DNA of 40,652 nucleotides from Verrucomicrobiota bacterium (lineage in GTDB: Bacteria > Verrucomicrobiota > Kiritimatiellia > Kiritimatiellales > Pontiellaceae): NCBI GenBank assembly GCA_024279685.1, contig JAJRRI010000011.1, positions 1-40,652 on the forward strand, given 5' to 3'. The translations under genes and the position numbers were made by a program. The notes under the pieces were generated by a model. It had not been told where the DNA came from. It made no database searches and saw only the letters and a list, made by a program, of their open reading frames with translations. This document shows, piece after piece, positions 2,649 through 32,987 of this stretch. How positions within the stretch are numbered: position 1 is the stretch's first letter; every line of letters starts with the position of its first letter.

Positions 2649-2663
2649 TTTCGGTATATTTCT
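2649..2663 (+). promoter_or_regulatory. TTTCG-box site A (symporter gene)
   Basis: The sequence is TTTCGGTATATTTCT, about 77 bp before the GPH symporter start at 2740. It matches the six-site consensus TTTCGRWATATTTCK, in which TTTC recurs 10 bp apart. It probably marks a regulator site or a promoter element; the binding protein is unknown. Confidence 0.55.
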
Positions 2664-2739
2664 GTAGGTTGTATGGGTGAGATCAAGTCCGAATTTGTGA
2701 TTGGGAAGAGGGAAAGGATGGTATTTTTCAAGGAGAGTT

Positions 2740-4146
2740 ATGAAAAAGAATGAATCGAAAGACAAGGATGTGTCGTTCTTGCGGAAGTGTACGTTTGGCA
2801 TGAGCGGAATGGCCGACAATCTGATGCAAAACAGCATCATGACCGTCGCCAGCCCGGTGATGGTGATCTCGCTAGGTATGAATCCGGCGCTCTTGGGTGT
2901 TGCGGTGTTCATTTCTCGAATATGGGATGCTTTCACCGATCCGTTGATGGGCTCGATTTCTGACAATACACGAACTCGTTTTGGGCGTCGCCGCCCCTAT
3001 ATGCTGGTGGGGGGCGTTTTGGCCGGCCTGGTTCTTATCGGTTTTTGGCAGATTCCCGCCGGAATGTCTGACACCGCGAATTTTATCTGGTTTCTTGGCG
3101 GACTGATCCTGTTTTACACGTGCTATACCGTATTTAACGTTCCCTGCAACGCACTGGGATATGAGCTAAGCTCCAATTATAACGAGCGCACGCGCATCAT
3201 GGCTCTTCGCTCTATCTTTGCCTCCGCTTCGAGCTTTGCCATCCACTGGCAATATAAGATGACCCAGCTTGATCGCTTCGAGGATACGTTGGATGGCATT
3301 CATACCGTCGCCATTTTTGTGGGGGTGTTGATTATTGCCACTACGGCCATTCCTGCGATCTTTTCTCGGGAACGCTTAGCTGAGACCGTGGCCGCCTCTC
3401 AGGAAAAAATACCCTTCTTTTCTAGTACCAAGACCACGTTCCGCAACCGCAACTTTGTCTTGTTAATGGGGGCCATCGTTGCCACTTGCCTCGGGCTCTT
3501 TATGGTCTCAAGCCTCGGAACCTTTATCAACATATACTATGTCTGTGGCGGAAGCGAAAAGGAAGGCGCCACCATCATGGCGCTGGGGGGGACGATCTAT
3601 GGGCTTGCCGGGCTGCTCACGGTGCCCCTACTTACGTTTGTATCCGGCCGAATTGGAAAGAAAAAGACGCTAATTTGGGGACTTTCGTTGGCCTTTTTAG
3701 GCGTACTCTTAAAATGGTTCACCTACACGCCGGAGCATCCTTATCTCCAGTTTATCACCCTCGCCTTTATGGCTCCAAGCCTTCAGGCGCTATGGATGCT
3801 CACGCCTTCTATCGTGGCCGATATTTGCGATGAAGATGAGTTGGCTACCGGTGTGCGCCGTGAGGGTATGTATAGCGCTGTCTACGGATATCTGATGAAG
3901 ATTGGCATGTCGATCGCCTACTTGGTGACTGGATTTTTACTTAATGCCACCGGATTTGATGCCGAGCTAGGGGGGAATCAGACGGAGAGTGCGATCTTCT
4001 GGTTGCGCTTCTTATTTGTTCTCGTTCCGGGCATTGGCCTGTTCGTCGCCTTGGTTTTGGTGAGTCGACTTACGACCAGCCAGGAGCGGGCCGAAGAGGT
4101 GAAATATTTACTCGAAAAGCGCCATGCCGAGGCGGCTGCGAGTTGA
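2740..4146 (+). CDS. GPH-family sugar:cation symporter (MFS)
   Basis: A 468-aa membrane protein with about twelve hydrophobic segments. The MelB/GPH signature is clear near residues 55-85: DAFTDPLMGSISDNTRTRFG followed by RRRPYMLVGG. Family members import glycosides, pentosides or hexuronides with Na+ or H+. I take ATG 2740 (MKKNESK), which has AGGAG five bases upstream, rather than the in-frame ATG at 2701, which has no such site. It is the only sugar importer in the window and stands before the LamG, sulfatase and glycosidase genes, so it probably brings in the oligosaccharides they release. TTTCG-box A lies upstream. The exact substrate cannot be read from sequence. Confidence 0.88.
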   Translation: MKKNESKDKDVSFLRKCTFGMSGMADNLMQNSIMTVASPVMVISLGMNPALLGVAVFISRIWDAFTDPLMGSISDNTRTRFGRRRPYMLVGGVLAGLVLIGFWQIPAGMSDTANFIWFLGGLILFYTCYTVFNVPCNALGYELSSNYNERTRIMALRSIFASASSFAIHWQYKMTQLDRFEDTLDGIHTVAIFVGVLIIATTAIPAIFSRERLAETVAASQEKIPFFSSTKTTFRNRNFVLLMGAIVATCLGLFMVSSLGTFINIYYVCGGSEKEGATIMALGGTIYGLAGLLTVPLLTFVSGRIGKKKTLIWGLSLAFLGVLLKWFTYTPEHPYLQFITLAFMAPSLQALWMLTPSIVADICDEDELATGVRREGMYSAVYGYLMKIGMSIAYLVTGFLLNATGFDAELGGNQTESAIFWLRFLFVLVPGIGLFVALVLVSRLTTSQERAEEVKYLLEKRHAEAAAS

Positions 4147-4303
4147 TCCGCTGAATAAAAATTGAGGATTTGACTCCTCCTGCGGATGTTAACATTTAAC
4201 GGGTGGGTCAAAAATCGGCGAGAGAATGGAGTGAGAGGTATGGGGGCAGGTACCGATTGTTTCTACGACGCACCGAAACAAACAGAAAAATAGGCATTTA
4301 CAT

Positions 4304-4318
4304 TTCGAAATATTTCGC
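4304..4318 (+). promoter_or_regulatory. TTTCG-box site B (LamG/PEP-CTERM gene)
   Basis: The sequence is TTTCGAAATATTTCG, preceded by TTTACA, about 89 bp before the gene at 4407. It contains the perfect palindrome CGAAATATTTCG (4307-4318) and is the most symmetrical of the six sites. Confidence 0.6.
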
Positions 4319-4406: not shown

Positions 4407-5189
4407 ATGAAACTAAAACATTTAATCACCGCTTCGGCCTGTATGGTCGCGCTGGGTTCTCAGGCCGCATTAGTGGGCTATTGGGATTTCGAGGATGCCT
4501 CGACTACCACCTTGCTCGACGGTTCGGGCAATGGTAATATGGCCACCGTTCAGTCCGGCGGTACTTTGGGATATTCGACAGACACTCCATTCAGCTCGGG
4601 CTCAAGCCTCTCGCTGGATGGTACGGCGGGCACATCGGCGCAAGCGCTGAGTTCAGCTTCTCTGTCGGTGGCTGGAGATTTAACCCTGGTGGCTTGGATC
4701 AAGCCGATTACGAGTGCTGATGTTAGTATGCAAATCTTGAGCAAGAACACAGGAGCCTACCGCTGGCGGATACAGAACATAAACACAGGCAACGGTAATT
4801 TTAATAACCGATCTTGGATCCAGGGTGGTCAATCCACTCAGGTTTTCGCGGGATCGACCGATTGGATCCATATAGCCGTGGTGTTAGATGATGCCACCAA
4901 CACTAAGACCACCTACCGAAATGGGGTATTGCTGCAGACAACGACTGGAGTGGCAACGCTTCTCGCTGGAACCGCCAACCTCCAAATTGGTGCCAATGGT
5001 ACGACCGAGGTTTTCAACGGCCTGATGGATGATGTGGCGATCTACAGCTCGACGCTGAGTGCAACTCAAATTGGCCAGCTCGTCGACGGTTCGAGGGATC
5101 CGATCACGGTCATTCCGGAACCAGCCACGCTGGGTCTGATTATGGGTGCAGGCGTCCTTCTAATTGGTGCCCGCCGCTTTATGATCTAA
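4407..5189 (+). CDS. LamG-fold protein with PEP-CTERM sorting tail
   Basis: A 260-aa exported protein: signal peptide 1-20 (ends GSQA-A), one LamG/concanavalin-like domain about 21-230 (opens ALVGYWDFED, ends FNGLMDDVAIYSSTLSATQI), then a C-terminal IPEPATLG motif, hydrophobic stretch and basic ARR end (about 236-260). That tail is the PEP-CTERM signal handled by exosortase/EpsH systems, so the protein is probably processed at the envelope. Its LamG domain closely resembles the first one of the protein at 23368. AAGGAG precedes the start and a strong terminator follows. Carbohydrate binding is likely but not shown. Confidence 0.85.
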   Translation: MKLKHLITASACMVALGSQAALVGYWDFEDASTTTLLDGSGNGNMATVQSGGTLGYSTDTPFSSGSSLSLDGTAGTSAQALSSASLSVAGDLTLVAWIKPITSADVSMQILSKNTGAYRWRIQNINTGNGNFNNRSWIQGGQSTQVFAGSTDWIHIAVVLDDATNTKTTYRNGVLLQTTTGVATLLAGTANLQIGANGTTEVFNGLMDDVAIYSSTLSATQIGQLVDGSRDPITVIPEPATLGLIMGAGVLLIGARRFMI

Positions 5190-5354: not shown

Positions 5355-6833
5355 ATGGATAGAAGAAAATATATCGGATGTTCGAGTATGGTCGGAACGG
5401 GAGCCCTGTTAGGACTTCAGGCGGCTGCGGCGCGTGCCGCCACGCCTTTAAAGAAACCGAATATTGTCTATGTCTTTGCCGATCAGTGGCGTGCTTCGGC
5501 ACTGGGTTATGCGGGCAACCCCGATGTGAAAACCCCGAATATTGATGCATTAGCCCAAGAGAGTTTTAATTTCAAGAATGCGGTTTCGAACTGTCCGGTG
5601 TGCTCGCCTGCCCGCGGATCGATCATTACGGGGCAGTATCCGCTGACCCACGGGGTTTTTTTGAACGATGTTCAGCTGAAGCATAGCAATCCTTCGATCG
5701 CCGACTGCTTCAACGAAGCAGGATATGAGACCGGCTATATTGGGAAATGGCATTTAGATGGGCGGGGACGGAGTGCGTATATCCCGCCGGGACGTCGCCA
5801 AGGCTTTAAATCCTGGCAGGCTCTTGAATGTACCCATAATTATAATCATTCGAAATACTACGATAACAACGATCCGGAAATCAAAAAATGGAAGGACTAC
5901 GATGCTTTTTCCCAAACGCAGGCCGCTTCGGAATATATCCGAGAAAATAAGGACAAGCCCTTCATGTTGTTCCTCTCTTGGGGCCCCCCGCATGGACCGT
6001 ATTTAACCGCTCCGAAATATTTTCAAGATCAGTATGATCCTGCCACGCTCCAACTGCGGCCCAATGTGCCCCGCGACTCAGCCGATTTTATCCCGCCCCA
6101 GCAAGGTCATGAATTGTGGGAAATGGAACCTCGAGCGCGTATCCGGGGAGTTACGGCGGGCTATTACGCACACTGTACCGCATTGGATGAATGTGTGGGC
6201 ATGCTACAAAAAACGATTCGGGCGGCTGGGTTGGAGGAAAATACGATTTTCATTTTCACGTCCGATCATGGCGATATGTTGGGATCGCACGGCCTCTTGA
6301 AAAAGCAGTGGGTCTACGATGAATCGGCCCGAGTTCCATTCCTGCTTAAATACCCGGCGCTGTCGAGCAAGGGCGTGGTCGAAACCCCGATCAATACTCC
6401 GGACTTGATGCCCACGCTATGCGAATTGGCTGGAGTCCCGATTCCTTCGAGCGTGGAAGGGACCAGCTATGCTTCGGAGCTGCGCTCTGGAAAATGGCCT
6501 GCAGAAACCGCCGCTTTGCTAGCCAACTATCATCCTTTCGGTCAAGTATCGGTCGATCGGGGCGGAAAGGAATGGCGCGCCATTCGCACGGAACGCTATA
6601 CCTATGCCCGCGACCTTCATGGGGAGTGGCTGTTATTTGATAATGAACAGGACCCCTATCAGATGAATAACTTGTTAGGGCAACCTGAACATGAAGATCT
6701 CCGGTTGAGAATGAAGCAGTTGTTACAGCAAAAATTGGATGACACCGATGATTCATTTGAGAAAGGCATGGTTTATGTCGATCGCTGGAACTACAAAGTG
6801 AACCAGCATGGCTCGGTTCCATATACCCTCTAG
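5355..6833 (+). CDS. exported type I sulfatase (formylglycine-dependent)
   Basis: A 492-aa alkaline-phosphatase-superfamily sulfatase. The catalytic signature is CSPAR at residues 83-87 followed by GSIITGQYP; Cys83 would be matured to formylglycine. Metal-binding signs include the early FADQWR (41-46) and SDHGDMLGSHG (303-313, D304/H305). The leader MDRRKYIG plus an alanine-rich stretch to about residue 29 looks Tat-like, suggesting folded export. It hydrolyses sulfate esters, probably on a carbohydrate. No maturase (anSME or a competent FGE) is seen in the window. A terminator separates it from the LamG gene and no TTTCG box precedes it, so it may be controlled separately. Confidence 0.9.
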   Translation: MDRRKYIGCSSMVGTGALLGLQAAAARAATPLKKPNIVYVFADQWRASALGYAGNPDVKTPNIDALAQESFNFKNAVSNCPVCSPARGSIITGQYPLTHGVFLNDVQLKHSNPSIADCFNEAGYETGYIGKWHLDGRGRSAYIPPGRRQGFKSWQALECTHNYNHSKYYDNNDPEIKKWKDYDAFSQTQAASEYIRENKDKPFMLFLSWGPPHGPYLTAPKYFQDQYDPATLQLRPNVPRDSADFIPPQQGHELWEMEPRARIRGVTAGYYAHCTALDECVGMLQKTIRAAGLEENTIFIFTSDHGDMLGSHGLLKKQWVYDESARVPFLLKYPALSSKGVVETPINTPDLMPTLCELAGVPIPSSVEGTSYASELRSGKWPAETAALLANYHPFGQVSVDRGGKEWRAIRTERYTYARDLHGEWLLFDNEQDPYQMNNLLGQPEHEDLRLRMKQLLQQKLDDTDDSFEKGMVYVDRWNYKVNQHGSVPYTL

Positions 6834-7010: not shown

Positions 7011-7025
7011 TTTCGAAATATATAG
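7011..7025 (+). promoter_or_regulatory. TTTCG-box site C (sulfatase 2 gene)
   Basis: The sequence is TTTCGAAATATATAG, 64 bp before the sulfatase 2 start. The left half fits the consensus, but the right half is degenerate (TATAG in place of TTTCK), making this the weakest of the six sites. Confidence 0.4.
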
Positions 7026-7088
7026 AAACAATGGGTTGAGTTTTCAAAGGCACGATGGTAAGTATGAGAAATAACCTAAGGAACTATT

Positions 7089-8657
7089 ATGACGAACCCA
7101 TCTGTTTCGGGCAAGAACCCCAATATTTTGTTACTTTTTACCGATCAACAACGATTCGACACCATTGCCGCCCTCGGCAATCCGGTGATCAAAACCCCCG
7201 CTATGGATCGGTTGGCAAACGAAGGAACCGCCTTTACGCGCGCCTATACGCCCTCGCCGGTCTGCGCTCCAGGACGGTGTAGCTTGGTCACCGGCCAGCC
7301 CGCCCACATCACGGGATGCAGCGATAATTCGCCGCTGCTGAAAGACATGCCTAGTTTTATCGAGCACTTGAGCGATGCTGGATACCAGACCCATGGCGTG
7401 GGAAAAATGCATTTTGCACCGGATGTGTTTCGCATGTGGGGCTTTGAGAGCCGCGATATTGCCGAGGAGTCGATGCGCAAGGGAAATGACTACATGGACT
7501 TGCTCAAAAAGAAGGGCTTTGGCTACATTGAAGAGGGCGGTATGCGCAGCGAATACTACTATCTGCCGCAACCGTCGCAGTTTTCGGTCGAAGACCACCA
7601 GTCGACCTGGGTGGGCGATCGCTCCATCGATTTTCTGAAACGCCGCGATGAGAGCCGACCTTTCTTTCTCTGGTCGAGTTGGGTTAAACCGCATCCGCCG
7701 TTTGAGTCGCCGGTGCCGTGGTCAAAGCTCTATCGCCCGGAAGAGGTTGGGTTCCCTTATGTTCCAGAAAATAGTGAAGAGATGCTGAACATCTGGAATC
7801 ACGTTCAGAACCGCTATAAATGGCGCGACAATGGAACCGATCATAATCTGATGCGAACCCTGCGCGCTGCCTATATGGCCTGCATCTCTTTCGTCGACTA
7901 CAACATCGGGCGCGTGCTGGACGAACTGGGTGATAAAATCGATAATACGCTGATTATTCTGAGCTCAGACCATGGTGAAATGCTGGGCGACTATGGGTCG
8001 GTCGGAAAGCGCTGCATGCTCGATCCGTCGGTGCGTGTTCCTTTGCTGGTACGCTGGCCGAAAAAATTTGCGGCCAACCAACAGTGCGATACCCCAGTTT
8101 CCTTGCTGGATATCTGGCCTACCTTCCTTTCGGCTGCTGGAAAAACCGAAGCGGCAGGTCAAGGGTACGGCTCCGACCTCAAGGCCATTGCCGCCGGGGA
8201 GGAGGCTGACCGAGGGGTGATCAGCCAGTTCCAGCAAAAGGATCTGGGGCTCTACATGTGGGTCACCCGGAATCTAAAATACATCTATAGTGCGTATGAT
8301 CGGCGCGAATGGCTACTGGATGTCGGGGGAGCCGGCATGGACATGAAAGAGCGCGATGTGACCGATGATCCTGATTATGCAGCGTCGTTGATTACCCTGC
8401 GAGAAAAGCTATTGGATACGCTGGAAAAAGAAGGGGTGCATGGGGTGGTAGAGGACGGAGCATGGAAAAAATACCCAAAACCCGATTTTGGATTGGATGA
8501 TCCCGATCACGGCTTGATTTATCAGGACGATGATGCGGGGGGTGACCTGCTGCAGCAAGCGATCGATGACCTGCCGGAGGGCTATCGTCGGCCGGTTTAT
8601 AAAAAAGGGCGCGAGGCGATCGGAATGATTTTGGATGCGATCGATCTGACGCTTTAA
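7089..8657 (+). CDS. type I sulfatase without a leader (probably cytoplasmic)
   Basis: A 522-aa sulfatase starting MTNPSVSGKNPNILLLFTDQ with no signal peptide, in contrast to the previous gene. The catalytic motif is CAPGR (59-63) followed by CSLVTGQPAH; Cys59 is the expected formylglycine residue. Metal-site residues appear in FTDQQR (17-22) and SSDHGEMLGDYG (292-303, D294/H295). AAGGA precedes the start. It sits 93 bp before the GH130-like gene on the same strand with no visible terminator, so the two are probably co-transcribed. I infer that it desulfates sugars already imported, consistent with a neighbouring symporter and two other leaderless glycosidases. Confidence 0.88.
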   Translation: MTNPSVSGKNPNILLLFTDQQRFDTIAALGNPVIKTPAMDRLANEGTAFTRAYTPSPVCAPGRCSLVTGQPAHITGCSDNSPLLKDMPSFIEHLSDAGYQTHGVGKMHFAPDVFRMWGFESRDIAEESMRKGNDYMDLLKKKGFGYIEEGGMRSEYYYLPQPSQFSVEDHQSTWVGDRSIDFLKRRDESRPFFLWSSWVKPHPPFESPVPWSKLYRPEEVGFPYVPENSEEMLNIWNHVQNRYKWRDNGTDHNLMRTLRAAYMACISFVDYNIGRVLDELGDKIDNTLIILSSDHGEMLGDYGSVGKRCMLDPSVRVPLLVRWPKKFAANQQCDTPVSLLDIWPTFLSAAGKTEAAGQGYGSDLKAIAAGEEADRGVISQFQQKDLGLYMWVTRNLKYIYSAYDRREWLLDVGGAGMDMKERDVTDDPDYAASLITLREKLLDTLEKEGVHGVVEDGAWKKYPKPDFGLDDPDHGLIYQDDDAGGDLLQQAIDDLPEGYRRPVYKKGREAIGMILDAIDLTL

Positions 8658-8750
8658 AACACGTTCAATACGAACGGATCTACCCCCTCAGCCTTTTGTT
8701 GACGCTGCGGGTAGTGTGCTATGGAAATGAATTTAAAAGAGGCAATCAAT

Positions 8751-9767: not shown

Positions 9768-9838
9768 AATCCAAATGAAGTGGGTTTTATCAGCGCGCAT
9801 AATTAATAAAAATAAGCGGGACTAGTGGATTGCCTCAA

Positions 9839-9984
9839 GTGGGTCTGTATGTTTTTTTTAAAACGTAGAGACCTCTGACGCCTCTGGGCCGCATGGTCAC
9901 GGATGGCTGAATTAGGCGATGAAAGTCCGCCCCGCCTTTTTCAGGTGCTTGTTTTTAAAAAGGGGGGATGCTTCATAGACCCAC
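9839..9984. repeat. inverted repeat in the gap before the GH39-like gene
   Basis: The arm gtgggtctgtatg (9839-9851) pairs with catagacccac (9974-9984), allowing one bulge. The stretch between includes a second weak pairing (tttttttaaaa against tttttaaaaa). It lies 80-230 bp before the GH39-like start. It could be a small non-coding repeat or a leader structure; only one copy was noticed. Confidence 0.35.
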
Positions 9985-10065
9985 GCATATGTTAAAATAA
10001 CTTTGTATCTTCTTATACAACAAACCGTTTTCACTTTAATAACCTTATTTGGCGATAAAATAGCG

Positions 10066-11607: not shown

Positions 11608-11862
11608 TGAGTGCAGTTTTTTCGCCCAGCCCCAGATTCTGGTTCTTCTCATATTAAAGCGCCGGCGCCGCCAATGCCGTCAAGTGCAACGTAAGGTAGT
11701 GGAGCAGGTTGAGTAAGGAGAAGTGGACTCGATTTCTAAACCAGTCAACAGTCAACTTAACCGCTGGTACAGATTTCCGAGACCACCTCTTGTGTCAACC
11801 GGATAGGCATGGTGTGAAACTAATCCGCTAAGTTAATTTAGTCATTTCAACAAGGAGTCGGG

Positions 11863-13518: not shown

Positions 13519-13733
13519 TCTAGACAGGATGAACAGAATCTACAGGATGGATATCTTGCTAATCTCATAAACAACAAGGCTCTGGCAGAGAATAACTACA
13601 GGGCCATAAAGCAGTATATTCAAATAAAATTGCAAGAATTAGGCTGTGATTGAACCGGGTTATTCAACCGCATCCTGTAGATCCCGTCAAAAGAAAAGTA
13701 GCTGCCGAGCTACCCTAAAAATATTCGAAGAGC
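13519..13733 (+). mobile_element. MITE-like repeat, copy 2
   Basis: The same unit as at 936-1207, in the same direction. The left arm is tctagacaggatgaacagaa onward (13519-13549), the right arm catcctgtagatcccgtcaa (13671-13690). The right arm lacks the 9 bases ctgttaatc present in copy 1, a deletion between short direct repeats. The tail attcgaagagcc is shared, but the left flank of copy 1 (acgtagaattttgtggtgg) is missing. It fills the 414-bp gap between the converging GH20 and split LamG genes; I see no gene in that gap. Confidence 0.65.
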
Positions 13734-17956: not shown

Positions 17957-17971
17957 AGAAATATATCGAAA
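17957..17971 (-). promoter_or_regulatory. TTTCG-box site D (split LamG/barrel gene)
   Basis: Read on the minus strand it is TTTCGATATATTTCT, identical to site F. It lies about 72 bp before the split LamG gene, in the divergent gap with the LacI-type regulator. Confidence 0.6.
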
Positions 17972-18262: not shown

Positions 18263-18265
18263 ATG

Positions 18266-19303
18266 ATGAAAAAAAAAGTGACGATCTATTCCTTAAGCAA
18301 GGACCTGGGCGTCAGCCCCGCTACGGTCAGCAAGGCCCTAAATAATTCCCCCGAACTAAATGCCGACACCATTGCGATGATTCGAAGGCGAGCTGAGGAA
18401 AGCGGATTTCGCCCCCGCCAGATGGCTTCGCGGGTACACAATATCTGTGCACTGATTCCAAGCGGCGGCCCGCAGCACAACGGCTTCTCCCCGTTTGCAA
18501 TGGACGTGATGCGCGGTATGATGGACTACCTTCAAGAAAACGGCCTTGAATTCTCCATGTACAGTGATACCGAAAAAAAGATGAACGACGGCCTCTTGCT
18601 CCGCCACCTTGGCCGCCGAAATATAAGCGGTGCAGTACTAATCAATCCGCTGAGCGAAGGAATTTTCTACGAGAATTTTAAAAAAAGTCATTTTCCGTAC
18701 ATCAATTTGTTCGGCGGCCCCGCCCAACCCGCTAAAAATTTGCTGATGCTCGACCACGTCGAAGTGGCCTTCCGCGCAGTAGACTACCTTATTCAGATTG
18801 GTCACCGTAAAATAGCCATTGTCATGACGCCCGCCACGACGACCACCGGAAAATCCCGCTTGGAAGGATACAAAAAAGCCCTGTCTCGAGCAGGCATTCC
18901 CATTGACCCAAGCTTGATATGGGGCACCAATAAAAATCAATATGGGCTGGAGGCCGGTTTTGATGCCATCATGGATTTGCGCAGGTCTAATCCGGAATTT
19001 ACGGCCGTGTTTTTAATGGGCGACCAAACCGCTATTGGGTCACTGCATGCCCTGCATCAGCTGGGGCTGTCGGTGCCCGGTCAAGTCTCTCTACTCACCT
19101 GCGACGATGCTCCCGAAATCCGATACCTGGACCCTCCGCTTACCGTCATGGATATTCCAAATCGGAAATTCGGCTATACGGCGGCCCAGCGGGTTCATCA
19201 GATGATTATTAATGATGATTCGACACAAGCTTCTCCAGCCCAAGAGCCATGGATGCGGGGCGAGTTGATTATCCGCGATTCAACCGCACCGCCTCGAAAA
19301 TAA
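18266..19303 (+). CDS. LacI/GalR-family transcriptional regulator
   Basis: The N-terminal helix-turn-helix is clear: VTIYSLSKDLGVSPATVSKA then LNNSPELNADTIAMIRRRAE, followed by the hinge and a periplasmic-binding-like sensor domain (ALIPSGG ... TAVFLMGDQTAIG ... SLLTCDD). Length is about 345 aa, normal for the family. The start is uncertain: ATG 18263 or 18266 puts the HTH at the usual N-terminus, while the longer frame from 18206 adds 20 residues; neither has a clear ribosome site. Such regulators usually repress sugar genes until a ligand binds. It is the only evident DNA-binding regulator in the window and sits divergent from a TTTCG-box gene, but the box lacks the usual LacI central CG, so a link is only a guess. 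Confidence 0.88.
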   Translation: MKKKVTIYSLSKDLGVSPATVSKALNNSPELNADTIAMIRRRAEESGFRPRQMASRVHNICALIPSGGPQHNGFSPFAMDVMRGMMDYLQENGLEFSMYSDTEKKMNDGLLLRHLGRRNISGAVLINPLSEGIFYENFKKSHFPYINLFGGPAQPAKNLLMLDHVEVAFRAVDYLIQIGHRKIAIVMTPATTTTGKSRLEGYKKALSRAGIPIDPSLIWGTNKNQYGLEAGFDAIMDLRRSNPEFTAVFLMGDQTAIGSLHALHQLGLSVPGQVSLLTCDDAPEIRYLDPPLTVMDIPNRKFGYTAAQRVHQMIINDDSTQASPAQEPWMRGELIIRDSTAPPRK

Positions 19304-19712: not shown

Positions 19713-19930
19713 ATCTATAGTTAAGCGGAGTTTTAGCGAGAATCTCTGCCGCGTAGCAAGGAACGATTCTCAAGAGGAAAGTCCGCAAATAACGGTGGGT
19801 CTAGTCGGAATAGCCGCAGGCTTATCGGCTCGGCCATATGCCATCTTTTCCCGTCAGACTCCCGATCTTAAATCCCGACTAAAGGCGGATTCACGCCGCT
19901 TATAGTTCGATCCGTGCCTAGCTACATCGA
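19713..19930. other. unassigned stretch with several short stems
   Basis: This is the rest of the 765-bp gap before the first GH5-like gene. An 86-codon frame spans the repeat edge (19645-19905) but has no domain and overlaps repeat DNA, so I do not call it. Short perfect inverted pairs occur: GAGAATC/GATTCTC (19738-19744/19765-19771) and TAGTCGG/CCGACTA (19802-19808/19875-19881). A structured RNA or another repeat is possible; nothing proves either. Confidence 0.25.
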
Positions 19931-19954
19931 AAAATAACGAAATAAAACTTTACG

Positions 19955-19969
19955 TTTCGGAATATTTCG
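19955..19969 (+). promoter_or_regulatory. TTTCG-box site E (GH5 cluster)
   Basis: The sequence is TTTCGGAATATTTCG, preceded by TTTACG as in sites B and F. It lies 100 bp before the first GH5-like gene and has two clean TTTCG units 10 bp apart. Confidence 0.6.
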
Positions 19970-22030: not shown

Positions 22031-22041
22031 GGGTGGGATAG

Positions 22042-23287: not shown

Positions 23288-23367
23288 CGCATTTTTTAGC
23301 ATAAAGAAATAGGGTTCGCGATGGGCGCGGATACCTTATTTATATGAGGACAACAGGGAGAGTACGG

Positions 23368-25513: not shown

Positions 25514-27031
25514 TTATCTGTTGGCAGGAAGCCAGTCGTCGGTGCGGAAAGGGGAGGCAGGAAAGCCTTCCCGATTGAAGAGGTTGCATTTATCAGGGTT
25601 GGAAGCCCAGGCATAGCGCACGGCCACGGGATGGGGGACTTCGAGGGATTCGACCACCACGGTGTTGCCTTTAATGGTGGCTTGTGCAAACACAAAACGT
25701 TGATCCTTTCCGGCAATGGCAAAGGTTTTCAAGGAGTCACCTTGGGCGACCAGCCCCGAGCCGACATCATCGAATCGGATTATAATTTTCCGCCCCTGCT
25801 TTTCCATGGAACGATAGAGCGGGCCGCCGGGAACGTTGTTTTTTTGATAGGTTTTCGCCAGAGCCAGTCGGGCGAGTCGATAGCCAACATCCTGTTTATT
25901 TTTGGGACGAATATCATCGGCTTCGCCAATATCGATGGCTACGGAAACCCCAGTCTGGGGAACCGTTTTTGAAAACTGCAAAAATGCTTCTCGCAGAAAA
26001 ACCCAGGGGCTATTTTCCACCGGTTTTTTCTGTGGGGTTCTGAAATTGGGTAGTTGTACGGCATAGAATGGGAAGTTGACGCCCCATTCCTGACGCCATT
26101 GAATGACCATATTTTCGAGTAAATCCCGGTAGAGCAGGGCTTTTCCCATGGAACGCGCATCATGTTCTCCCTGATACCAGATGGCGCCGCGAATCCCATA
26201 GGGTGCCAAGGGGTGGATCATCGAATTGTATAGGTGTCCAGCATAGTTCCGATAGCGAATGGGTTTGGAGCCGATTTCCTGTTCTTGCCAGCCTTCCGTC
26301 TCCCGCTTGAATCGGTCACTTTCAGCACCCGCGTCGAGCGTCTCTACGCATTCGCTGGCGAGAACGCCGTATTGAGCGATGGATGGAAAGGATTCGAAGG
26401 ACGATGCCGGCCCCCAAGCCTCTACGCTGGAGCTTCCCCACGCAGATACAATTAAACCCACCGGAATACGAAGCTCTTTTTGCAATTCGCGGCCAAAGAA
26501 ATAAGCTACGGCAGAAAACCTCGGGGCGTTATTCGGATTACACTCCTCCCACGTTCCGGAAACATCCTGTTGCCGCTGGTTGCTCGCTAAGGTTTTTACT
26601 TTGAAGAGATGGATGAGGGGGTAGCTGGCGGCGGCGATTTCCTCGTCGGAATTCACCGTGGCTCGCAGCCCGGCCTGCATGTTTGATTGGCCGGAGCAAA
26701 GCCAGACTTCTCCCACCAAAACACCTTTGATCGTTAACGTTTCCTTCGGAGTGGAGATGGACAGCGTTCGCGGAGCACTTGAAGCCTTCATCTTTGCGAG
26801 GCGTACCTTGAAACGCCCCGTCGGATCTGCGGTTGTGGTTGCCTTACTCCCGCCAAAAGAAAGGGTCACCGTTTCACCCGGATCCGCCCATCCCCAAACG
26901 GGAATCGGCTGCTTCTGTTGCAATACCATTCCGTCCGAAAAAAGCGCAGGGAGTTTCAGCTCCGCACCACATGAAAGAAGTAAGCTACTTCCAATACAGC
27001 CGATGATCCATTTATTCATTGTATTTCTCAT
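25514..27031 (-). CDS. sialate O-acetylesterase-like SGNH esterase (lipoprotein)
   Basis: A 505-aa SGNH-type esterase. Block I is GEVWLCSGQSNMQA, with the nucleophile Ser at about 116; the later GAIWYQGEHDA block supplies oxyanion residues. An N-terminal beta domain (LPALFSDGMVLQQ ... IPVWGWADPG) is typical of the sialate O-acetylesterase family. The leader ends LLLSC at residue 21, a plausible lipobox, so it is probably lipid-anchored. GAGG precedes the start. It is the last gene of a minus-strand set, 56 bp after the 1371-aa protein. It likely removes acetyl esters from sialic acid or other acetylated sugars so glycosidases can act; acetyl-xylan or algal glycan is an alternative target. Confidence 0.87.
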   Translation of the reverse strand: MRNTMNKWIIGCIGSSLLLSCGAELKLPALFSDGMVLQQKQPIPVWGWADPGETVTLSFGGSKATTTADPTGRFKVRLAKMKASSAPRTLSISTPKETLTIKGVLVGEVWLCSGQSNMQAGLRATVNSDEEIAAASYPLIHLFKVKTLASNQRQQDVSGTWEECNPNNAPRFSAVAYFFGRELQKELRIPVGLIVSAWGSSSVEAWGPASSFESFPSIAQYGVLASECVETLDAGAESDRFKRETEGWQEQEIGSKPIRYRNYAGHLYNSMIHPLAPYGIRGAIWYQGEHDARSMGKALLYRDLLENMVIQWRQEWGVNFPFYAVQLPNFRTPQKKPVENSPWVFLREAFLQFSKTVPQTGVSVAIDIGEADDIRPKNKQDVGYRLARLALAKTYQKNNVPGGPLYRSMEKQGRKIIIRFDDVGSGLVAQGDSLKTFAIAGKDQRFVFAQATIKGNTVVVESLEVPHPVAVRYAWASNPDKCNLFNREGFPASPFRTDDWLPANR

Positions 27032-27087: not shown

Positions 27088-30000
27088 TTAGTTCAAAATC
27101 CTGTAGAGGCGCGGTGTAGCGGTGGTGGGGAGCGGTGGAACCGCTGGATTGTTATAGACGGGGAAGCTTTGCATGAGGTGTTGCACCTCGGCGTAGCGAC
27201 CGGCTGCGTAAGCCTCCATGATGCGCTGGTAGGTGGCCATGATGCGTCCGAGCTCCACGCCGACGGCGGTGGTGTTTTCAATCTGGAGTGAAAGATTATG
27301 GATGGCTTTTCGGATTTCTGCACTATTTTGCAACGGAATTACGGCCTCGAATCCGGTGGGAGCAATGCTTCCGATCCCGGAGAGGCAGAGCACTTGATAG
27401 GGTTCGAGCGGAACGGCTACTTCGTATTCTCCATCGCCGATGGGCGTGTCGCCATAGGCCGTTCCATCGAGCGTGGCGGCGAGCGCGAGGCTTCCCTGCA
27501 TGTGTAGCGTGCAGTCGATGGGATAAGGTTGCTGGTTCACGAAGTAAATGTAGGCGGTGCCTCCGACATTACAATAGCGTACTTTGACGGGGTCGTCCGC
27601 GCCGGGGAGATCCAAGAAATCGTAGGCGGGGATTGATCGGTAGCCCGCATAGAAACGTGAAAACTCATCGATATTTCCATTGTCGGGGCATCCCCACCAA
27701 CCGTGGATGATCCGCTTGGCATCGTTGTGGGCGAGAATATCGGTCATGTATTCGAGAATGAATTCCTGCGAGGGCACGACGTTGGCAAAGGCGTGGATCG
27801 GCCCGTTGACGGTTCCCCCCCAGGAGCCGAACGGAGTCCAATAGTCAGGAATCCGCTGGGTATTGTTGGGGAGGAATTCGAGATTGGAGTGGTAAGAGAT
27901 AAAAGCACTGCGTTGCGCATGGTTGGCCACTAGCGCACTGGTTTCGGGGTTAAACCCGTCGTAGCGCTGGGTCGCTCCGCCGTAGACCCGGCCGCGGTGC
28001 GGCGTAATGGCCTGCATGAGTACAATATCGGAGTCGTTGGAAAAAAGGTCGAAATCAATGCCTGATTCGCGCCAGTACTGCGCCAATTGCTCGATCCCGG
28101 TCGGCCAGGTTTGATTTACGAAAACGAAGGCTTCGCTTAGCCGGAGGGAGATAACGAGTTTGGCATTGGGGTTGTATTCGCGGATGATGGCGGCGAGCGA
28201 TTTATAGAACGTGCGTATTTTCTGGCAGCGCCAATTGATCCATTGCGATTTTGCATTCGCAAAAAGCCAGTCGCGGCGGGCACTAAAGCGGCGACGCTCC
28301 GTGGTTTCGGGTACGTTGATGCCGGTGTCTTGCTCGAACTGCTCGATGTTAATGTCGCTGTAGCCTTCTTCGAGGCTGCCGAAGAAGAGGCTACTTTGGT
28401 TGATGCCCAAGAAGTGGACTCCGCCAAAGTTGGCGTATTTTCCGTAGCGCTGGGCATAGGCGCGCACCTGTCGCCCGTAGGCGGCCTGAACGATCGGGTT
28501 CAGAGGATTGTATGAGCCGGTGTAGTAGTCGTCTGAGGCGATGCAGTCGACGATTAGCTTCCGAATGGGATCGTTCGTACTGCCTTCGAGCAGCTCTTGC
28601 ATGGAATCGGTGGTGCGAAGATAGTCGGCGGGAATCATTTTATAAAAAGAACCCTTGGTTCCTGAAAACGAAATCCGATTATTGATGCTCGCATAGAATG
28701 AGAAGCCTTTGCTCTCGAGCATCAATGCACCGAGATCGGCCCAGCCTGGTACTCGTCCATTTTCCGACAGACGGCGACCGGTTGCGATTTGATTGCTATT
28801 AAGTCCATTGTCGCCATCGTAGTCCGTGAGCATCATGTGCCAGAGGTTTTGGCCGCTATAATCGAGATAATCCACGATGCGGCTCCATTTGTTTTTCCAG
28901 AAATCCCCTAGGGTGACATTAGGATGGATTCGATCCTGATTGAACCAGCCATAGGCCGTCATGGAAGGATCTTCTTGCCACACGCCAATCTCGCGGGACG
29001 GTGCGCCGGCTAGATTGGCCACTCGTCGCTCAGGCAATAGGCCGGTGGCCTCATAGATCTTGATGGTCGCCAGCGCGGGGCCGGCTTGCCCGGCATAGGT
29101 CCTAAAGGCATAGCAACCGACCACGATATCGGGTGTGTCAGGCCAGAAGAGCAGGCGTTTGGTTTGCATTTTTCCGGTGAGTGGATGGTCGACGCCTGTG
29201 ATAACACCTATGGTATCGAGCCCTTTAGCATCAATATGCCCATTAAACTCTTGGAATATGGCTACCATGAAGGTTCGGTCGGCGTTGTCGGGATAGGTGA
29301 TTTCCAACCAGTGCGGTTGGCCGGGGTTCGAGAGCGGATCGATCTTATAGGCAAATCCGCTGGTCGGAATATTTTGCGCCTCGCGGTAGCTTCCAATGGG
29401 CGAGTCCACGACGGAAACCGCGCCGTCGTCGCGATATTTATCGGTGGCGATCGTTTGTGTGCAATCGATCGTTTGAAGCAGGGTCTTGTTTCCTCCCGCG
29501 CCCGGTTCCACGATGCTTTTGGTGGGGTGTAAATCAGCTTCAGTGATCGCAAGGAGCTCGAAGGAGCGGACTTGAGAACCCTGAGTAGTAAGGTTCACCC
29601 GGTAGAGTCCGTCGGAGGGGTTGTTTAATGGGATGGAGATGGTGTTGTTGGTTCCTGCCGCCACGGAAATCGATTGAACCGTGCTGAATACGACGGGGCC
29701 ATTGGCCTGAAGAATGTCCACCGTGTAGCTTTGGTTCGATACCGCATTCGTGCCGTTGTTGGAAAACTGGAGGCGCAGGGAATTATTCTGGCCGGAGAAA
29801 ACGGCGTAGTCGAGCAAATCGGCCGAGAGCCCCATTTCCTCGGAATAGAGCGCCAAGACCTCGCCATGATTCAGCGGCCAGTTGTAGACGGAAATTTCGT
29901 CGAGTACGCCGGAGATACTGCCCCAATTGCGACCGAACTCAAGTTGGCTAAAGGGATTCTCCAGCACTTTCATGCTCCCACTCACCCCAAGATTTTTCCC

Positions 30001-31203
30001 GTCGAGATAGAGGTCCGCTTTGCGAGTGGTCGTATCCCAAGTAAAGACATAGTGGTGCCATGTATCCTTCATCACCTGCCGGTTGACCCCATTCCAAATT
30101 GAGCCTCCATCCCAATAGAGGTTGAGGAAATTTTGCATCTTGGCCTCTAACCGATCTGCGCCTGATCCAGCGATGAAAAGTCGGCGTTCCACACCGCGGG
30201 CGTTGATGTTATTGCCGATGGGGAATCCGTTGCCTGCCGGTTCCCAGTCGGTTTTCATCCAGAAGGACATCGTTCCTGCCGTATGGAGCATGTTCGATCC
30301 GGCGGCATACTGGAGCAAGGAGGAGCTTCCAAAGGAAGCGCCTTGGCCCTTGAATCCGGCGGAGAGAGTTACGCCCGAATTGAGCTGGACCACCGAGTTT
30401 CCGTCGGCCTCGTCGGCGTCGAAGTCGGTGTCGAATGAAATTTTAAGCGTACGTTTCTTGGGCGACTCCACCTCCGGTGGGATGACCTGCGGGGCGTTGG
30501 GGGCATTGAGGGTTCCGTTGTAGTCCTGTAGCACTTCGGCTGCCGTTAAGGCTGAGTCATAGATCTTGAATTCATCCATTACCCCGTTTGCGTGCGGCGT
30601 TCCTCTCCCCGTGCTGAGCATCTGTCCAATTTTCATTTCGGGATAGTCCGCCAAACTCCAGGTGATGGAGCGTTGGCCAATCAGGTTTCCGTTTAGATAG
30701 ATCCAAATCCCCGACGTATGGTCCCACGTAAAGGCGAGATGCGACCATTGTCCGATAGTCAAACCGCTCGTGCTAGCCACCGCATAGGCACCCGCCTTCG
30801 AATCCACATCCATTCGGATTCTTCCGCCTGTAAAAGCCCAAGACCAAATCACCATGTAGTTTCTTGCCCCTTTGGTCCACGTCCCGTTCGAGAAGAAGCC
30901 GTATTCTTCGTTGGCGAAATCGGTGGAGGCATCCGGCTTGTACCAAAAGGAAATGGTGCCCTGCGCCTTATTGATATTGCCAGCGGCATCGATCGTGCCG
31001 AACTCGCCGCGCTGGGTGATGGATGCGCCGTTGCTCACCACGCCGGTCGTTAAATTAGGATAATCGGCATAGACTTCCGCACCGTTTTGGGAAAACTCAA
31101 CCCACTGCTCATCTTCAAAAGAGAGGTGAAGTAGGGTTTGCGGGGCCGCCCCCGCCCCCGCGATAACGCCGACCAATAGACTCAGTAGGATCTTTTTTTT
31201 CAT
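27088..31203 (-). CDS. large secreted LamG-LamG-barrel protein (intact copy)
   Basis: A 1371-aa protein: signal peptide 1-19, LamG 1 about 20-235, LamG 2 about 252-465, a beta domain about 470-560, then an enzyme-like half with HWLEITYPDN, GVWQEDPSMTAYGWF, NLWHMMLTDYDGDNGLNSNQ, KIRTFYKSLAAII and RIIHGWWGCPDNGNIDEFSR. The second half reads like a glycoside-hydrolase-type TIM barrel followed by a beta domain (PVKVRYCN ... YFVNQQPYP), but I cannot place it in a known family. It is the undamaged relative of the gene split at 16.4 kb. GGAG precedes the ATG. The middle gene of a three-gene minus-strand set governed by TTTCG-box F. Confidence 0.82.
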   Translation of the reverse strand: MKKKILLSLLVGVIAGAGAAPQTLLHLSFEDEQWVEFSQNGAEVYADYPNLTTGVVSNGASITQRGEFGTIDAAGNINKAQGTISFWYKPDASTDFANEEYGFFSNGTWTKGARNYMVIWSWAFTGGRIRMDVDSKAGAYAVASTSGLTIGQWSHLAFTWDHTSGIWIYLNGNLIGQRSITWSLADYPEMKIGQMLSTGRGTPHANGVMDEFKIYDSALTAAEVLQDYNGTLNAPNAPQVIPPEVESPKKRTLKISFDTDFDADEADGNSVVQLNSGVTLSAGFKGQGASFGSSSLLQYAAGSNMLHTAGTMSFWMKTDWEPAGNGFPIGNNINARGVERRLFIAGSGADRLEAKMQNFLNLYWDGGSIWNGVNRQVMKDTWHHYVFTWDTTTRKADLYLDGKNLGVSGSMKVLENPFSQLEFGRNWGSISGVLDEISVYNWPLNHGEVLALYSEEMGLSADLLDYAVFSGQNNSLRLQFSNNGTNAVSNQSYTVDILQANGPVVFSTVQSISVAAGTNNTISIPLNNPSDGLYRVNLTTQGSQVRSFELLAITEADLHPTKSIVEPGAGGNKTLLQTIDCTQTIATDKYRDDGAVSVVDSPIGSYREAQNIPTSGFAYKIDPLSNPGQPHWLEITYPDNADRTFMVAIFQEFNGHIDAKGLDTIGVITGVDHPLTGKMQTKRLLFWPDTPDIVVGCYAFRTYAGQAGPALATIKIYEATGLLPERRVANLAGAPSREIGVWQEDPSMTAYGWFNQDRIHPNVTLGDFWKNKWSRIVDYLDYSGQNLWHMMLTDYDGDNGLNSNQIATGRRLSENGRVPGWADLGALMLESKGFSFYASINNRISFSGTKGSFYKMIPADYLRTTDSMQELLEGSTNDPIRKLIVDCIASDDYYTGSYNPLNPIVQAAYGRQVRAYAQRYGKYANFGGVHFLGINQSSLFFGSLEEGYSDINIEQFEQDTGINVPETTERRRFSARRDWLFANAKSQWINWRCQKIRTFYKSLAAIIREYNPNAKLVISLRLSEAFVFVNQTWPTGIEQLAQYWRESGIDFDLFSNDSDIVLMQAITPHRGRVYGGATQRYDGFNPETSALVANHAQRSAFISYHSNLEFLPNNTQRIPDYWTPFGSWGGTVNGPIHAFANVVPSQEFILEYMTDILAHNDAKRIIHGWWGCPDNGNIDEFSRFYAGYRSIPAYDFLDLPGADDPVKVRYCNVGGTAYIYFVNQQPYPIDCTLHMQGSLALAATLDGTAYGDTPIGDGEYEVAVPLEPYQVLCLSGIGSIAPTGFEAVIPLQNSAEIRKAIHNLSLQIENTTAVGVELGRIMATYQRIMEAYAAGRYAEVQHLMQSFPVYNNPAVPPLPTTATPRLYRILN

Positions 31204-31282
31204 GGGCTTGCTCCGTTTTAATTCTAAACGTATCGTATGGCTTGTATGAAGGATTCTGATTACGGCAAAGAGGATTTAAAAG

Positions 31283-32884
31283 TTAAGGCCAAACCGTTTC
31301 TAAGCGATAAAAAACCTGATCGGTCGTGTTCGTATCTGAAATCATCAAAGGGTTTCCGGTTCCGGCCCGCCAACTTCCTGTGGTCACCCAAGTCTCGCCC
31401 AGCAGGCTGAGTTTAGTTTGAACGGCATAAAGACGCCCAATAGAGGTGCTAAAGAGTATGTCCGAGATGTCGGCCTGAGTTCCGAACTCGAAGGTTGGGG
31501 CGGAGGAGGGGTTGTTCGGATCCGTACCGGCCACCCGTTCATCCCAGTCCGATACGAAATCGCCATCGCCATCGCTCGTCACGACGTTGTTGCCGCTACC
31601 CACGATGATTTCGCCGACCTCGGTCAACATCGCCCCGTCTAGCGTACTCAAAATCGTTACTCGGAGGAACCGTACCGACTCGGTCGGGAACGAGAAGGAC
31701 TTGTCGCTATTAGAAGCGTTGTTCGTCAATGAGGCAACGGTTCGCCAGTCTGCGCTTTCGGCTATTTCGGAAATCACAAGGCTCGACCCAGTATAGACGG
31801 CCAATTCGAGATTCGCCGGGGTTTGCTGCACCCAAAACTGCTTGCGCAGCTGGACATAGTCTACATTTCGGGTTTGTGCCAGATCGATCAAGAAAGATTC
31901 TGCACCGCCCGTTCCAATGGGGAAGGAGCCTGTTTGGCTCGTTGCATCGGGCAAGGCAGAGAAGGAAACCACCGTGTCCATATCGCGGAGAGTAGCACTC
32001 AGCGGAACCAGATCGGGAAGACCCAGCACCGTGAACACCAAATCCTGATTGCTATTCGCTAGGCCGAGCTCCCAGATGATATTCTGCCCGTTGAGAACCT
32101 CGAAGTTAGCGTGGGAGAAGGTTCCTGTCGCACTAAAGGTACCCCCTTGGCTATCGAGCCAATTTTTCACGCCGCCCGTCAGTAATGCGCCCCGGGTGCT
32201 ATCCATTAAGGTATAGCTTCCCGTAGTGGCGGTCAGGTGGGTTAGATCCAGTTGGATCATCCCGTCCAGCACATTGACATCGCGGTCGTCCCCCGAAATG
32301 ACCACTCGAGGAGCTGCAGCGGCTCCAAATTTTAAATGGATCGTTCCGTTGGTGCCTAGATTGACCCATGCGGTTGTAAAACCGGCACCATTCTCTAACA
32401 CAAGCGTTCCCGCTCCGTATTCGGGGAGTCCATACAGCCCGTATCGGTCCATGCTAATCATGATTGCCCCTCCGTTTAGAAACGGATTGGCGATCGTGCC
32501 GCCCGCGCGGACCGTCAATGTTCCAGCAAAAGACGAGTCGCCAGGTCTCCCTAGAGTAGGCGAGCTCATGGAGAGAGTTTTTCCCGGGGGCACCTCGATA
32601 AAGACCTCGGAGGCCGGAGTCGCCGTGGAGTACACTTTCATGCTCGCGATATCCTGAGTAAACAGCGAGTCGATAATCGCTGGATCGCCTGCCGGGGCCG
32701 AGGCATTGCCGAAAAACTCAAAGTCTCCGATGCTTTCTCCGGGAACGGTGTTGGCCACCCAGTTCAGCGGCGAAGAGAGCAGATTGTTATTTAGATCTCC
32801 TCCGTCGAATTGAAAAACCGCCGCATGGATAGATACTTCCACGGCAACCACGAGGCCTATAGCGATTCTTTTTTTCTGATTCAA
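31283..32884 (-). CDS. secreted surface protein with a calcium-type repeat
   Basis: A 533-aa protein with a signal peptide (about 1-21, ends SIHA-A). Residues 22-300 are a Gly/Thr/Asn-rich beta region like the solenoids of autotransporter-type PVC proteins. About 310-425 resembles a discoidin-like sandwich (VSFSALPDAT ... SVRFLRVTIL). DGDGDFVSDWDERVAGTDPN (about 437-456) is a thrombospondin-3/dockerin-like Ca2+ motif, and a short C-terminal beta domain ends FYRLETVWP. The start is TTG (32882-32884) with GAGG seven bases upstream; no ATG fits better. First gene of the minus-strand set after TTTCG-box F. No enzyme motif; probably adhesion or glycan binding. Confidence 0.72.
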   Translation of the reverse strand: MNQKKRIAIGLVVAVEVSIHAAVFQFDGGDLNNNLLSSPLNWVANTVPGESIGDFEFFGNASAPAGDPAIIDSLFTQDIASMKVYSTATPASEVFIEVPPGKTLSMSSPTLGRPGDSSFAGTLTVRAGGTIANPFLNGGAIMISMDRYGLYGLPEYGAGTLVLENGAGFTTAWVNLGTNGTIHLKFGAAAAPRVVISGDDRDVNVLDGMIQLDLTHLTATTGSYTLMDSTRGALLTGGVKNWLDSQGGTFSATGTFSHANFEVLNGQNIIWELGLANSNQDLVFTVLGLPDLVPLSATLRDMDTVVSFSALPDATSQTGSFPIGTGGAESFLIDLAQTRNVDYVQLRKQFWVQQTPANLELAVYTGSSLVISEIAESADWRTVASLTNNASNSDKSFSFPTESVRFLRVTILSTLDGAMLTEVGEIIVGSGNNVVTSDGDGDFVSDWDERVAGTDPNNPSSAPTFEFGTQADISDILFSTSIGRLYAVQTKLSLLGETWVTTGSWRAGTGNPLMISDTNTTDQVFYRLETVWP

Positions 32885-32972
32885 TTTGAAACCTCTCTAG
32901 GTTTAATAAAATAGACTTGATTTAATCCGTTGTGTTGAGATTCGAACGGATTGTAAGTGTGTATCAACATAA

Positions 32973-32987
32973 AGAAATATATCGAAA
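32973..32987 (-). promoter_or_regulatory. TTTCG-box site F (three-gene minus-strand set)
   Basis: On the minus strand it reads TTTCGATATATTTCT, preceded by TTTACA. It is 89 bp before the TTG start of the surface protein gene, the same distance as site B from its gene. Confidence 0.6.

What the first reader, a model, noticed from the sequence alone, without database searches (positions are those of the whole stretch)
2649..32987. Shared 15-bp box upstream of six polysaccharide-related transcription units
TTTCGRWATATTTCK occurs at 2649, 4304, 7011 (degenerate), 17957(-), 19955 and 32973(-). It always lies about 60-100 bp before, and oriented toward, the symporter, LamG/PEP-CTERM, sulfatase 2, split LamG/barrel, GH5 and surface-protein genes. 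Sites B, E and F are also preceded by TTTAC(A/G). Two TTTC units 10 bp apart fit one face of the helix, and site B is a perfect 12-bp palindrome. None was noticed before the kinase, protease, SHD1 or pgi genes. This looks like a local regulon for polysaccharide use whose regulator is unnamed.
Basis: seen in the sequence. Interest (0 to 1): 0.8.

Follow-up and report, generated by a model that had tools for sequence, protein, structure and literature searches.

The report
LacI-type switch for sulfated-sugar island
A short DNA box repeated before six gene units of a sugar-degradation island is real, occurs nowhere else in this genome in exact form, and is most likely the landing site of a LacI-type repressor encoded in the middle of the same island.

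Summary
TTTCGRWATATTTCK occurs exactly five times in the 2.69-Mb genome, all in this 40.7-kb contig, each in a gap 71-99 bp before a gene of the island. A sixth copy (C) is degenerate; a seventh, inverted, lies 12 bp upstream of E. The regulon reading is supported, but a candidate regulator is at hand: a LacI-family gene (18269-19303) between sites D and E. The box can be read as an imperfect 18-bp inverted repeat, TNNCGAAAT|ATTTCGNNA. Three homologues with the same type of recognition helix (PAT-SK), in other genomes of the phylum, have a box or box-like site by GH5, GH130 or GH2 genes. In one, the box is the only exact copy in 4.5 Mb and ends 7 bp before the ORF of the LacI homologue. Some unrelated LacI genes with that helix have TTTCG half-sites too, mostly 4 bp apart with a central CG; here the spacer is 2 bp and the hinge lacks the usual leucine. 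The boxes lie inside a 31-kb stretch bracketed by a 160-nt direct repeat. Best reading: a local LacI repressor regulon with an operator lacking the central CG. Binding, inducer and expression are untested.

The parts
2649..2663 (+). site A, TTTCGGTATATTTCT; before the GPH-type sugar symporter (MFS_2; ORF 2701-4146, likely ATG 2740); preceded by TTTAGG
   Evidence: exact match; gap 76 bp; Pfam MFS_2
4303..4317 (+). site B, TTTCGAAATATTTCG; perfect 12-bp palindrome 4306-4317; before LamG gene 4407-5189 and sulfatase 5355-6833; preceded by TTTACA
7011..7028 (.). site C, degenerate, TTTCGAAATATATAGAAA (7 of 9 pairs as an 18-bp inverted repeat); before sulfatase 7089-8657 and GH130 8721-9767
17957..17971 (-). 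site D, TTTCGATATATTTCT; before LamG 16440-17885(-) and barrel-type ORF 13828-16449(-)
18269..19303 (+). LacI-family regulator (ORF from 18206; homology starts at 18269): HTH with SPATVSKAL helix, hinge ASRV instead of AxxL, Peripla_BP_3 sensor domain; the proposed box-binding protein
   Evidence: Pfam PF13377 1.1e-30, PF00356 2.6e-4; NCBIfam LacI-type models below cut-offs; PDB LacI/CcpA/PurR matches; hinge
19928..19942 (-). site E2, TTTCGTTATTTTTCG, inverted, 12 bp upstream of E
19955..19969 (+). site E, TTTCGGAATATTTCG; before GH5 20069-22030, GH5 22136-23287 and LamG 23344-25080; preceded by TTTACG
32973..32987 (-). site F, TTTCGATATATTTCT; before the run 31283-32884 (533 aa, no family found), 27088-31203 (LamG + barrel), 25514-27031 (SASA esterase), all on -; preceded by TTTACA
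2100..2259 (+). left copy of a 160-nt direct repeat: a truncated relic of the start of the kinase gene; left edge of the box-bearing stretch
   Evidence: 95% identity, 152 of 160
33417..33576 (+). right copy of the same repeat, covering the start of the kinase-FGE gene 33467-36043; right edge of the box-bearing stretch

Best explanation
The box is the operator of the LacI-family protein encoded at 18269-19303. A dimer reads two inverted half-sites TTTCG (CGAAA-TA-TTTCG with outer T/A, about 18 bp; one half is degenerate at most sites). At A, B, E and F the box fills the gap between a -35-like TTTA[CG]N and a -10-like TA element (an inference from sequence). Bound protein would then exclude RNA polymerase and silence six transcription units: symporter, LamG plus sulfatase, sulfatase plus GH130, LamG plus barrel protein, GH5 pair, and the operon at F. 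When the polymer is present, a released sugar binds the sensor domain, the dimer lets go, and the set turns on together. GH130 and GH5 neighbours suggest a mannose-containing oligosaccharide as inducer, but that is a guess. The protein belongs to a small LacI subfamily whose hinge lacks the residue that wedges into a central CG, and its operator lacks that CG. Shown: box, statistics, gene order, homologues, co-occurring sites. Inferred: binding, repression, inducer.
For: Regulator present between D and E. The box is confined to this contig: 5 of 5 exact hits; no other of 345 class genomes has two on one contig. Homologues with the same type of helix: G588 (its contig is letter for letter the named record JAFGXT010000005.1, Victivallales MAG; 36-37% identity) has TTTCGTAATATTTCG as its only exact TTTCGNAATATTTCK in 4.5 Mb, 7 bp before the first ATG of the LacI ORF and just after TTGATT-17-TATAAT (promoter reading mine), heading a same-strand run LacI-GH130-...-GH5-...-LamG. 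G475 (37%) has TTTCGTTATGTTTCG 8 bp before a GH2 mannosidase gene heading a run with GH5, MFS_2, sulfatases, GH78 and LacI. G301 (58%) has the box-like TTTCGATTATTTTCG in the gap between LacI and a divergent ORF plus GH5. In these three loci (59 kb) 4 intergenic general boxes were found, 0.25 expected from 79 generic LacI loci (P about 1.4e-4). The seven homologues with arginine in place of the lysine (PST/PGT-R; 148 kb) had 2 general and 0 strict hits. Unrelated LacI genes with the lysine helix: CGAAA-N4-TTTCG at <=1 mismatch within 400 bp upstream in 4 of 6, against 6 of 71 with arginine (Fisher P 0.002, uncorrected). Hinge residues ASRV, LSRV, NKRC, QSNY in the four box-bearing homologues. 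Literature: Leu54 goes with a central CG (PMC2978694, passages); both are lost together in EbgR-like members (PMC2329647, passages); more than 75% of LacI-family sites lie 140-30 bp before the start codon (PMC4052901, section 9), as all six do here.
Against: No binding or expression data. The generalised box (TTWCG...) and the 4-bp spacer test were defined after sites had been seen. Dyad symmetry is imperfect: pairs of 9 are A 4, B 7, C 7, D 6, E 7, F 5; the right-hand CG is present only in B and E of the six. So the direct-repeat reading is not excluded. The centre is T|A at the six sites and G588 but T|T at E2, T|G at G475 and A|T at G301. Two of the lysine-helix controls with a normal hinge (L181, L187) have, besides their 4-bp-spacer sites, an exact 2-bp-spacer site CGAAAAGTTTCG, so spacer and hinge are not cleanly linked. 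The four lysine-helix controls with half-sites are all clostridial and partly near-identical, so the Fisher P overstates independence. The gaps before GH39 (9768-10002) and GH20 (11608-11862) hold no box. The window's own regulator gene has no box in its near promoter; D lies 234 bp upstream of its ORF. The in-genome paralogue on contig C84 (53% identity, helix SAATVSR) has a candidate TTACGAAAGATTACG that breaks the lysine/TTTCG match; 0.12 such hits are expected there by chance. In G475 one of the two general boxes (L092:2738) has no clear partner gene.
Confidence: 0.78

Rival explanations
1. The box is read as a 10-bp direct repeat (TTTCG-N5-TTTCK) by some other regulator, for example an AraC-type or response-regulator protein encoded elsewhere, and the LacI gene is a bystander.
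For: TTTCG...TTTCK describes A, B, D, E and F exactly; A has poor dyad symmetry and A, D and F lack the right-hand CG; AraC-type proteins and response regulators are known (recalled) to use direct repeats.
Against: No other DNA-binding domain was found in the 22 window ORFs scanned, though 4 of them matched no family. The box or a box-like site accompanies LacI homologues with the same type of helix in three other genomes and is scarce at the arginine-type homologues. Inverted TTTCG half-sites recur at unrelated LacI genes with that helix.
Confidence: 0.12
2. The box is a core promoter element of an alternative sigma factor rather than an operator.
For: Constant placement next to TTTAC[AG] at B, E and F and a following TA at A, B, E and F.
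Against: In G588 and G475 the box lies downstream of good -35/-10 pairs (TTGATT-17-TATAAT; TTGACA-17-TAAGAT; my reading of the sequence) and 7-8 bp before the first ATG, where a promoter element is unlikely to work.
Confidence: 0.04
3. Shared descent only: the boxes are copies of one duplicated promoter, not a regulatory site.
For: The island holds paralogous genes (GH5 pair 80%, LamG/barrel genes 71-80% in stretches), and D and F boxes are identical.
Against: 60-nt flanks of the six sites are 18-40% identical while boxes are 10-15 of 15.
Confidence: 0.02
4. Chance recurrence in AT-rich gaps.
For: One-mismatch versions also occur elsewhere in the genome (16 outside the window against 4 for the reversed pattern).
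Against: Shuffles, genome scan and class scan; 12 of those 16 lie inside ORFs.
Confidence: 0.01

Closest known systems
LacI/GalR-family local sugar regulators (regulons of Ravcheev et al. 2014, PMC4052901)
   Same: HTH plus periplasmic-binding-protein-like sensor; regulator inside its sugar locus; even palindrome; sites 60-100 bp before starts; several units under one local regulator
   Different: No central CG (1173 of 1303 TFs have it; 49 have another pair, 29 a degenerate one); hinge without the usual leucine; half-sites 2 bp apart; no clear site before the regulator's own gene
EbgR-like LacI-family regulators (LacR, GalR, RafR; Francke et al. 2008, PMC2329647)
   Same: Loss of the hinge leucine together with loss of the central CG
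   Different: Those operators have a single central C or G; here the palindrome is even with TA at the centre
CytR (cited in PMC2329647 passages as a versatile binder; the rest recalled)
   Same: Degenerate second half-site
   Different: CytR works with CRP (recalled); no partner is known here; the half-site differs
Bacteroides PUL regulators (SusR, hybrid two-component systems; recalled)
   Same: Local control of a polysaccharide locus
   Different: Protein families differ; no SusC/D pair among the 22 window ORFs scanned

Membership tests
[quoted passage not shown]
   PF00356 matched 10-45/46 but below its cut-off (21.2 against 27 bits); helix SPATVSKAL aligns with homologues; CcpA and LacI structures match from query residue 2-3 on
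[quoted passage not shown]
   PF13377 1.1e-30, 107.3 bits against cut-off 26.5
[quoted passage not shown]
   12-bp core perfect at B; 18-bp dyad 7 of 9 pairs at B, C and E, 6 at D, 5 at F, 4 at A
CcpA-like majority of the LacI family | Central CG in the operator | tested here: not met
   Centre is T|A in all six sites. Usual but not defining: 78 of 1251 even-palindrome TFs lack it (PMC4052901)
CcpA-like majority of the LacI family | Hinge Ala51/Leu54 | tested here: not met
   ASRV in the window protein (Ala kept, Leu replaced by Val); LSRV, NKRC, QSNY in homologues; 68 of the 74 control proteins shown (of 77) end in L
[quoted passage not shown]
   63-99 bp for all six
Autoregulated local LacI regulators | Operator before the regulator's own gene (72% in PMC4052901) | tested here: inconclusive
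   No box in the near promoter of the window gene, D 234 bp upstream of the ORF; box directly before the G588 homologue
[quoted passage not shown]
   needs protein and DNA
EbgR-like LacI subfamily | Operator with a single central C or G | tested here: not met
   even palindrome, TA centre

The most novel reading that the evidence does not exclude
A thinly spread LacI subfamily of this phylum has given up the hinge residue that wedges into a central CG, and its operators have lost those two central base pairs, so that the same TTTCG half-sites stand 2 bp closer than at ordinary LacI genes with the same recognition helix. The regulator, its compressed operators and a set of GH5/GH130/GH2 and sulfatase genes travel together as a self-contained, mobile regulon.
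Probability: 0.3. Interest if true: 0.6.

Novelty: new variant of a known kind. Interest (0 to 1): 0.45.

Why it matters
It gives a concrete regulator-operator pair for a group of sulfatase-bearing bacteria in which the searches made here (open-licence papers only) listed no paper on such a regulon. It also makes a structural rule testable: whether operator centre and spacing in the LacI family follow the hinge. Six sites, one candidate regulator and a short palindrome can be tested in a laboratory E. coli strain without culturing the organism.

Tried and rejected
A named-genome scan with the single regulator protein found nothing. C84, G032, G070, G552, G553, G728, G846 and G925 held no strict box; G057 reached a best matrix score of 11.6 of 24.6. 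G032 instead has three TGCAACTTGTTGCA-like sites near its LacI gene, at 0, 1 and 2 mismatches; single hits at 1-2 mismatches elsewhere (G552, G925, G070, also the window, C84, G588, G475) are about what chance gives (0.75 per 20 kb by my arithmetic), so I claim nothing on them. An early idea that lysine at helix position 20 goes with C at operator position -6 (note) was dropped when the lysine-helix controls showed the same TTTCG half-site in a longer palindrome. The 16-bp palindrome AATGAATCGATTCATT at the LamG start is about what chance gives in 40 kb (0.6 by my arithmetic). One stretch each of G301 and G588 fetched (L212, L213) was not analysed. No structure was predicted. My gene list counts the ORF 39779-40198(-) as a gene; the last kilobase of the contig may instead hold the start of a gene running off the end, so the gap total is approximate.
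Full report
What is there. The pattern TTTCGRWATATTTCK has five exact matches in the window, at 2649(+), 4303(+), 17957(-), 19955(+) and 32973(-). These are the only five in the 2,688,584-base genome, whose contig C176 is this window. Site C is degenerate (7011 +, 2 mismatches; 7014 -, 1 mismatch), and a seventh, inverted copy lies 12 bp upstream of E at 19928(-). Allowing one mismatch to TTTCGNNATATTTCK gives 24 places: 8 in the window and 16 outside, against 4 for the reversed control. Of the 16 outside, 12 lie inside ORFs of at least 90 codons and 4 do not. In the window one of the 8 (11395) is inside the GH39 gene; the others are in gaps.

Is it more than chance. In 100 shuffles of the window the pattern at up to 3 mismatches gave 9.5 on average and 18 at most, against 23 found. 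Gaps are 15.4% of the window by my gene list, and all six hits of the general box TTWCGN5TTWCK lie in gaps. Across 345 genomes of the class there are 47 exact hits of TTTCGNWATATTTCK in 38 genomes; this genome has 5 on one contig, and none of the others has two on one contig (many assemblies are fragmented). Of 29 other hits that I inspected (of 42), 20 are inside ORFs, 9 are not, and none of the 29 loci shows a LacI-type helix by my regular expression. The 60-nt flanks of the six window sites are unrelated.

Anatomy. The boxes precede a GPH-type symporter (A), LamG plus sulfatase (B), sulfatase plus GH130 (C), LamG plus barrel protein (D), two GH5 plus LamG (E), and a run of a 533-aa protein of no known family, a LamG-barrel protein and a SASA esterase (F). 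GH39 and GH20 genes inside the same stretch have no box. Start codons lie 63-99 bp downstream. At A, B, E and F the box directly follows a -35-like TTTA[CG]N and is followed after one base by TA; I read this as an operator in the spacer of a sigma-70-type promoter, an inference. D and C do not fit that geometry.

The regulator. ORF 18206-19303 encodes a LacI-family protein: Peripla_BP_3 at 1.1e-30, LacI HTH partial and below its cut-off, many LacI, CcpA and PurR structures matched. Homology starts at about 18269. It lies between sites D and E. Of the 22 window ORFs scanned, 4 matched no Pfam family and no other carried a DNA-binding domain.

Homologues. A close homologue is rare: 4 of 345 class genomes and 7 of 387 sampled phylum genomes at E <= 1e-40, this genome included (the first look scored only 5-6 candidates per genome), with three more found by profile (searches added none). 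Four members share a helix of the type [SA]PAT[VI]SKAL: the window, G301 (58%), G588 (36-37%) and G475 (37%). All four loci carry a box or box-like site. The G588 contig is letter for letter JAFGXT010000005.1, a Victivallales MAG; NCBI places that order in Lentisphaerota, and GTDB, as I recall, in Verrucomicrobiota, so the window's phylum is probably Verrucomicrobiota in the GTDB sense. In G588 TTTCGTAATATTTCG is the only exact TTTCGNAATATTTCK in 4.5 Mb. It ends 7 bp before the first ATG of the LacI ORF (the homologous part starts six codons later) and lies just downstream of TTGATT-17-TATAAT, at the head of a same-strand run LacI, GH130, phosphoesterase, DUF1559, 428-aa ORF, GH5, solute-binding protein, LamG. 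In G475 a box (one mismatch) lies 8 bp before a GH2 mannosidase gene heading a run with GH5, MFS_2, two sulfatases, GH78 and LacI; a second hit there (L092:2738) has no clear partner. In G301 a box-like site lies in the gap between LacI and a divergent ORF plus GH5. The seven arginine-helix homologues had 2 general-box hits in 148 kb and no strict one. Background from 79 generic LacI loci (1,407 kb): 32 general hits, 6 of them intergenic, and 11 strict ones. Four intergenic hits in the 59 kb of G301, G588 and G475 compare with 0.25 expected. The general box was chosen after the sites were seen.

Why a LacI dimer. Of 77 control LacI proteins, 6 have lysine at the helix position where 71 have arginine. 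Within 400 bp upstream, CGAAA-N4-TTTCG at <=1 mismatch occurs at 4 of the 6 lysine genes, two or three times each and with CG at the centre (for example CGAAAACGTATTCG), against 6 of 71 arginine genes (Fisher P 0.002, uncorrected for the nine spacers tried; the four are clostridial and partly near-identical). So the half-site TTTCG goes with this helix in unrelated bacteria too. In the window the half-sites are 2 bp apart. Against a clean rule, two of the lysine controls (L181, L187) also carry an exact 2-bp-spacer site, CGAAAAGTTTCG; 2 of 71 arginine genes have a 2-bp-spacer hit. The lysine controls keep a hinge ending in leucine; the window protein and its three homologues have ASRV, LSRV, NKRC and QSNY. 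Papers on the family tie the hinge leucine to the central CG and report that both are lost together in EbgR-like members (PMC2978694 and PMC2329647, passages read). In a survey 1173 of 1303 regulators have a CG centre and 49 another pair (PMC4052901, outline, passages and sections 6 and 9 read).

Against this reading. Dyad symmetry is partial: 4 to 7 of 9 pairs, with the right-hand CG only at B and E. The centre varies at E2, G475 and G301. The paralogue on C84 (53%, arginine helix) has a TTACGAAAGATTACG between TTGACT and TAAGTA, which does not follow the helix rule; about 0.12 such hits are expected there by chance. The regulator's own near promoter has no box. Nothing here shows binding.

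The island. A 160-nt direct repeat (152 of 160 identical) lies at 2100-2259 and 33417-33576. The right copy is the start of the kinase-FGE gene, the left copy its truncated relic. Every box found lies between them. The simplest reading is that the regulon arrived or moved as one piece beside the kinase gene and brought its own regulator; this is inference, and no integrase or empty site was sought.

Literature. Searches were made; two searches listed no paper on a LacI regulon of sulfatase loci in this phylum. In the Pontiella agarivorans paper (PMC10880615, word search only) 'LacI' and 'motif' do not occur. The library holds only open-licence papers.

Noticed in passing
2100-2259 and 33417-33576: 160-nt direct repeat, 95% identical, bracketing the whole polysaccharide island; the left copy is a relic of the start of the kinase gene.
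   Followed up: partly
984-1207, 13521-13734, 19538-19679 (inverted): Three copies of an intergenic repeat, 142-226 nt aligned at 85-87% identity, two of them inside the island.
   Followed up: no
33467-36043: Protein kinase fused to an FGE-sulfatase (formylglycine-generating-enzyme-like) domain, next to a sulfatase island.
   Followed up: no
27088-31203 against 16440-17885 plus 13828-16449: The same LamG-barrel protein occurs fused in one unit and split into two ORFs in another (71-80% nucleotide identity in stretches).
   Followed up: no
L058:703, 799, 11565 (G032): Arginine-helix homologue with three TGCAACTTGTTGCA-like sites near its gene: perhaps a different operator of a related regulator.
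   Followed up: partly
L055:19418 (contig C84 of the same genome): TTACGAAAGATTACG between TTGACT and TAAGTA, before an 827-aa ORF next to the paralogous LacI gene.
   Followed up: partly
35965-37041: ORF with a coproporphyrinogen III oxidase domain (PF01218), directly after and partly overlapping the kinase ORF.
   Followed up: no
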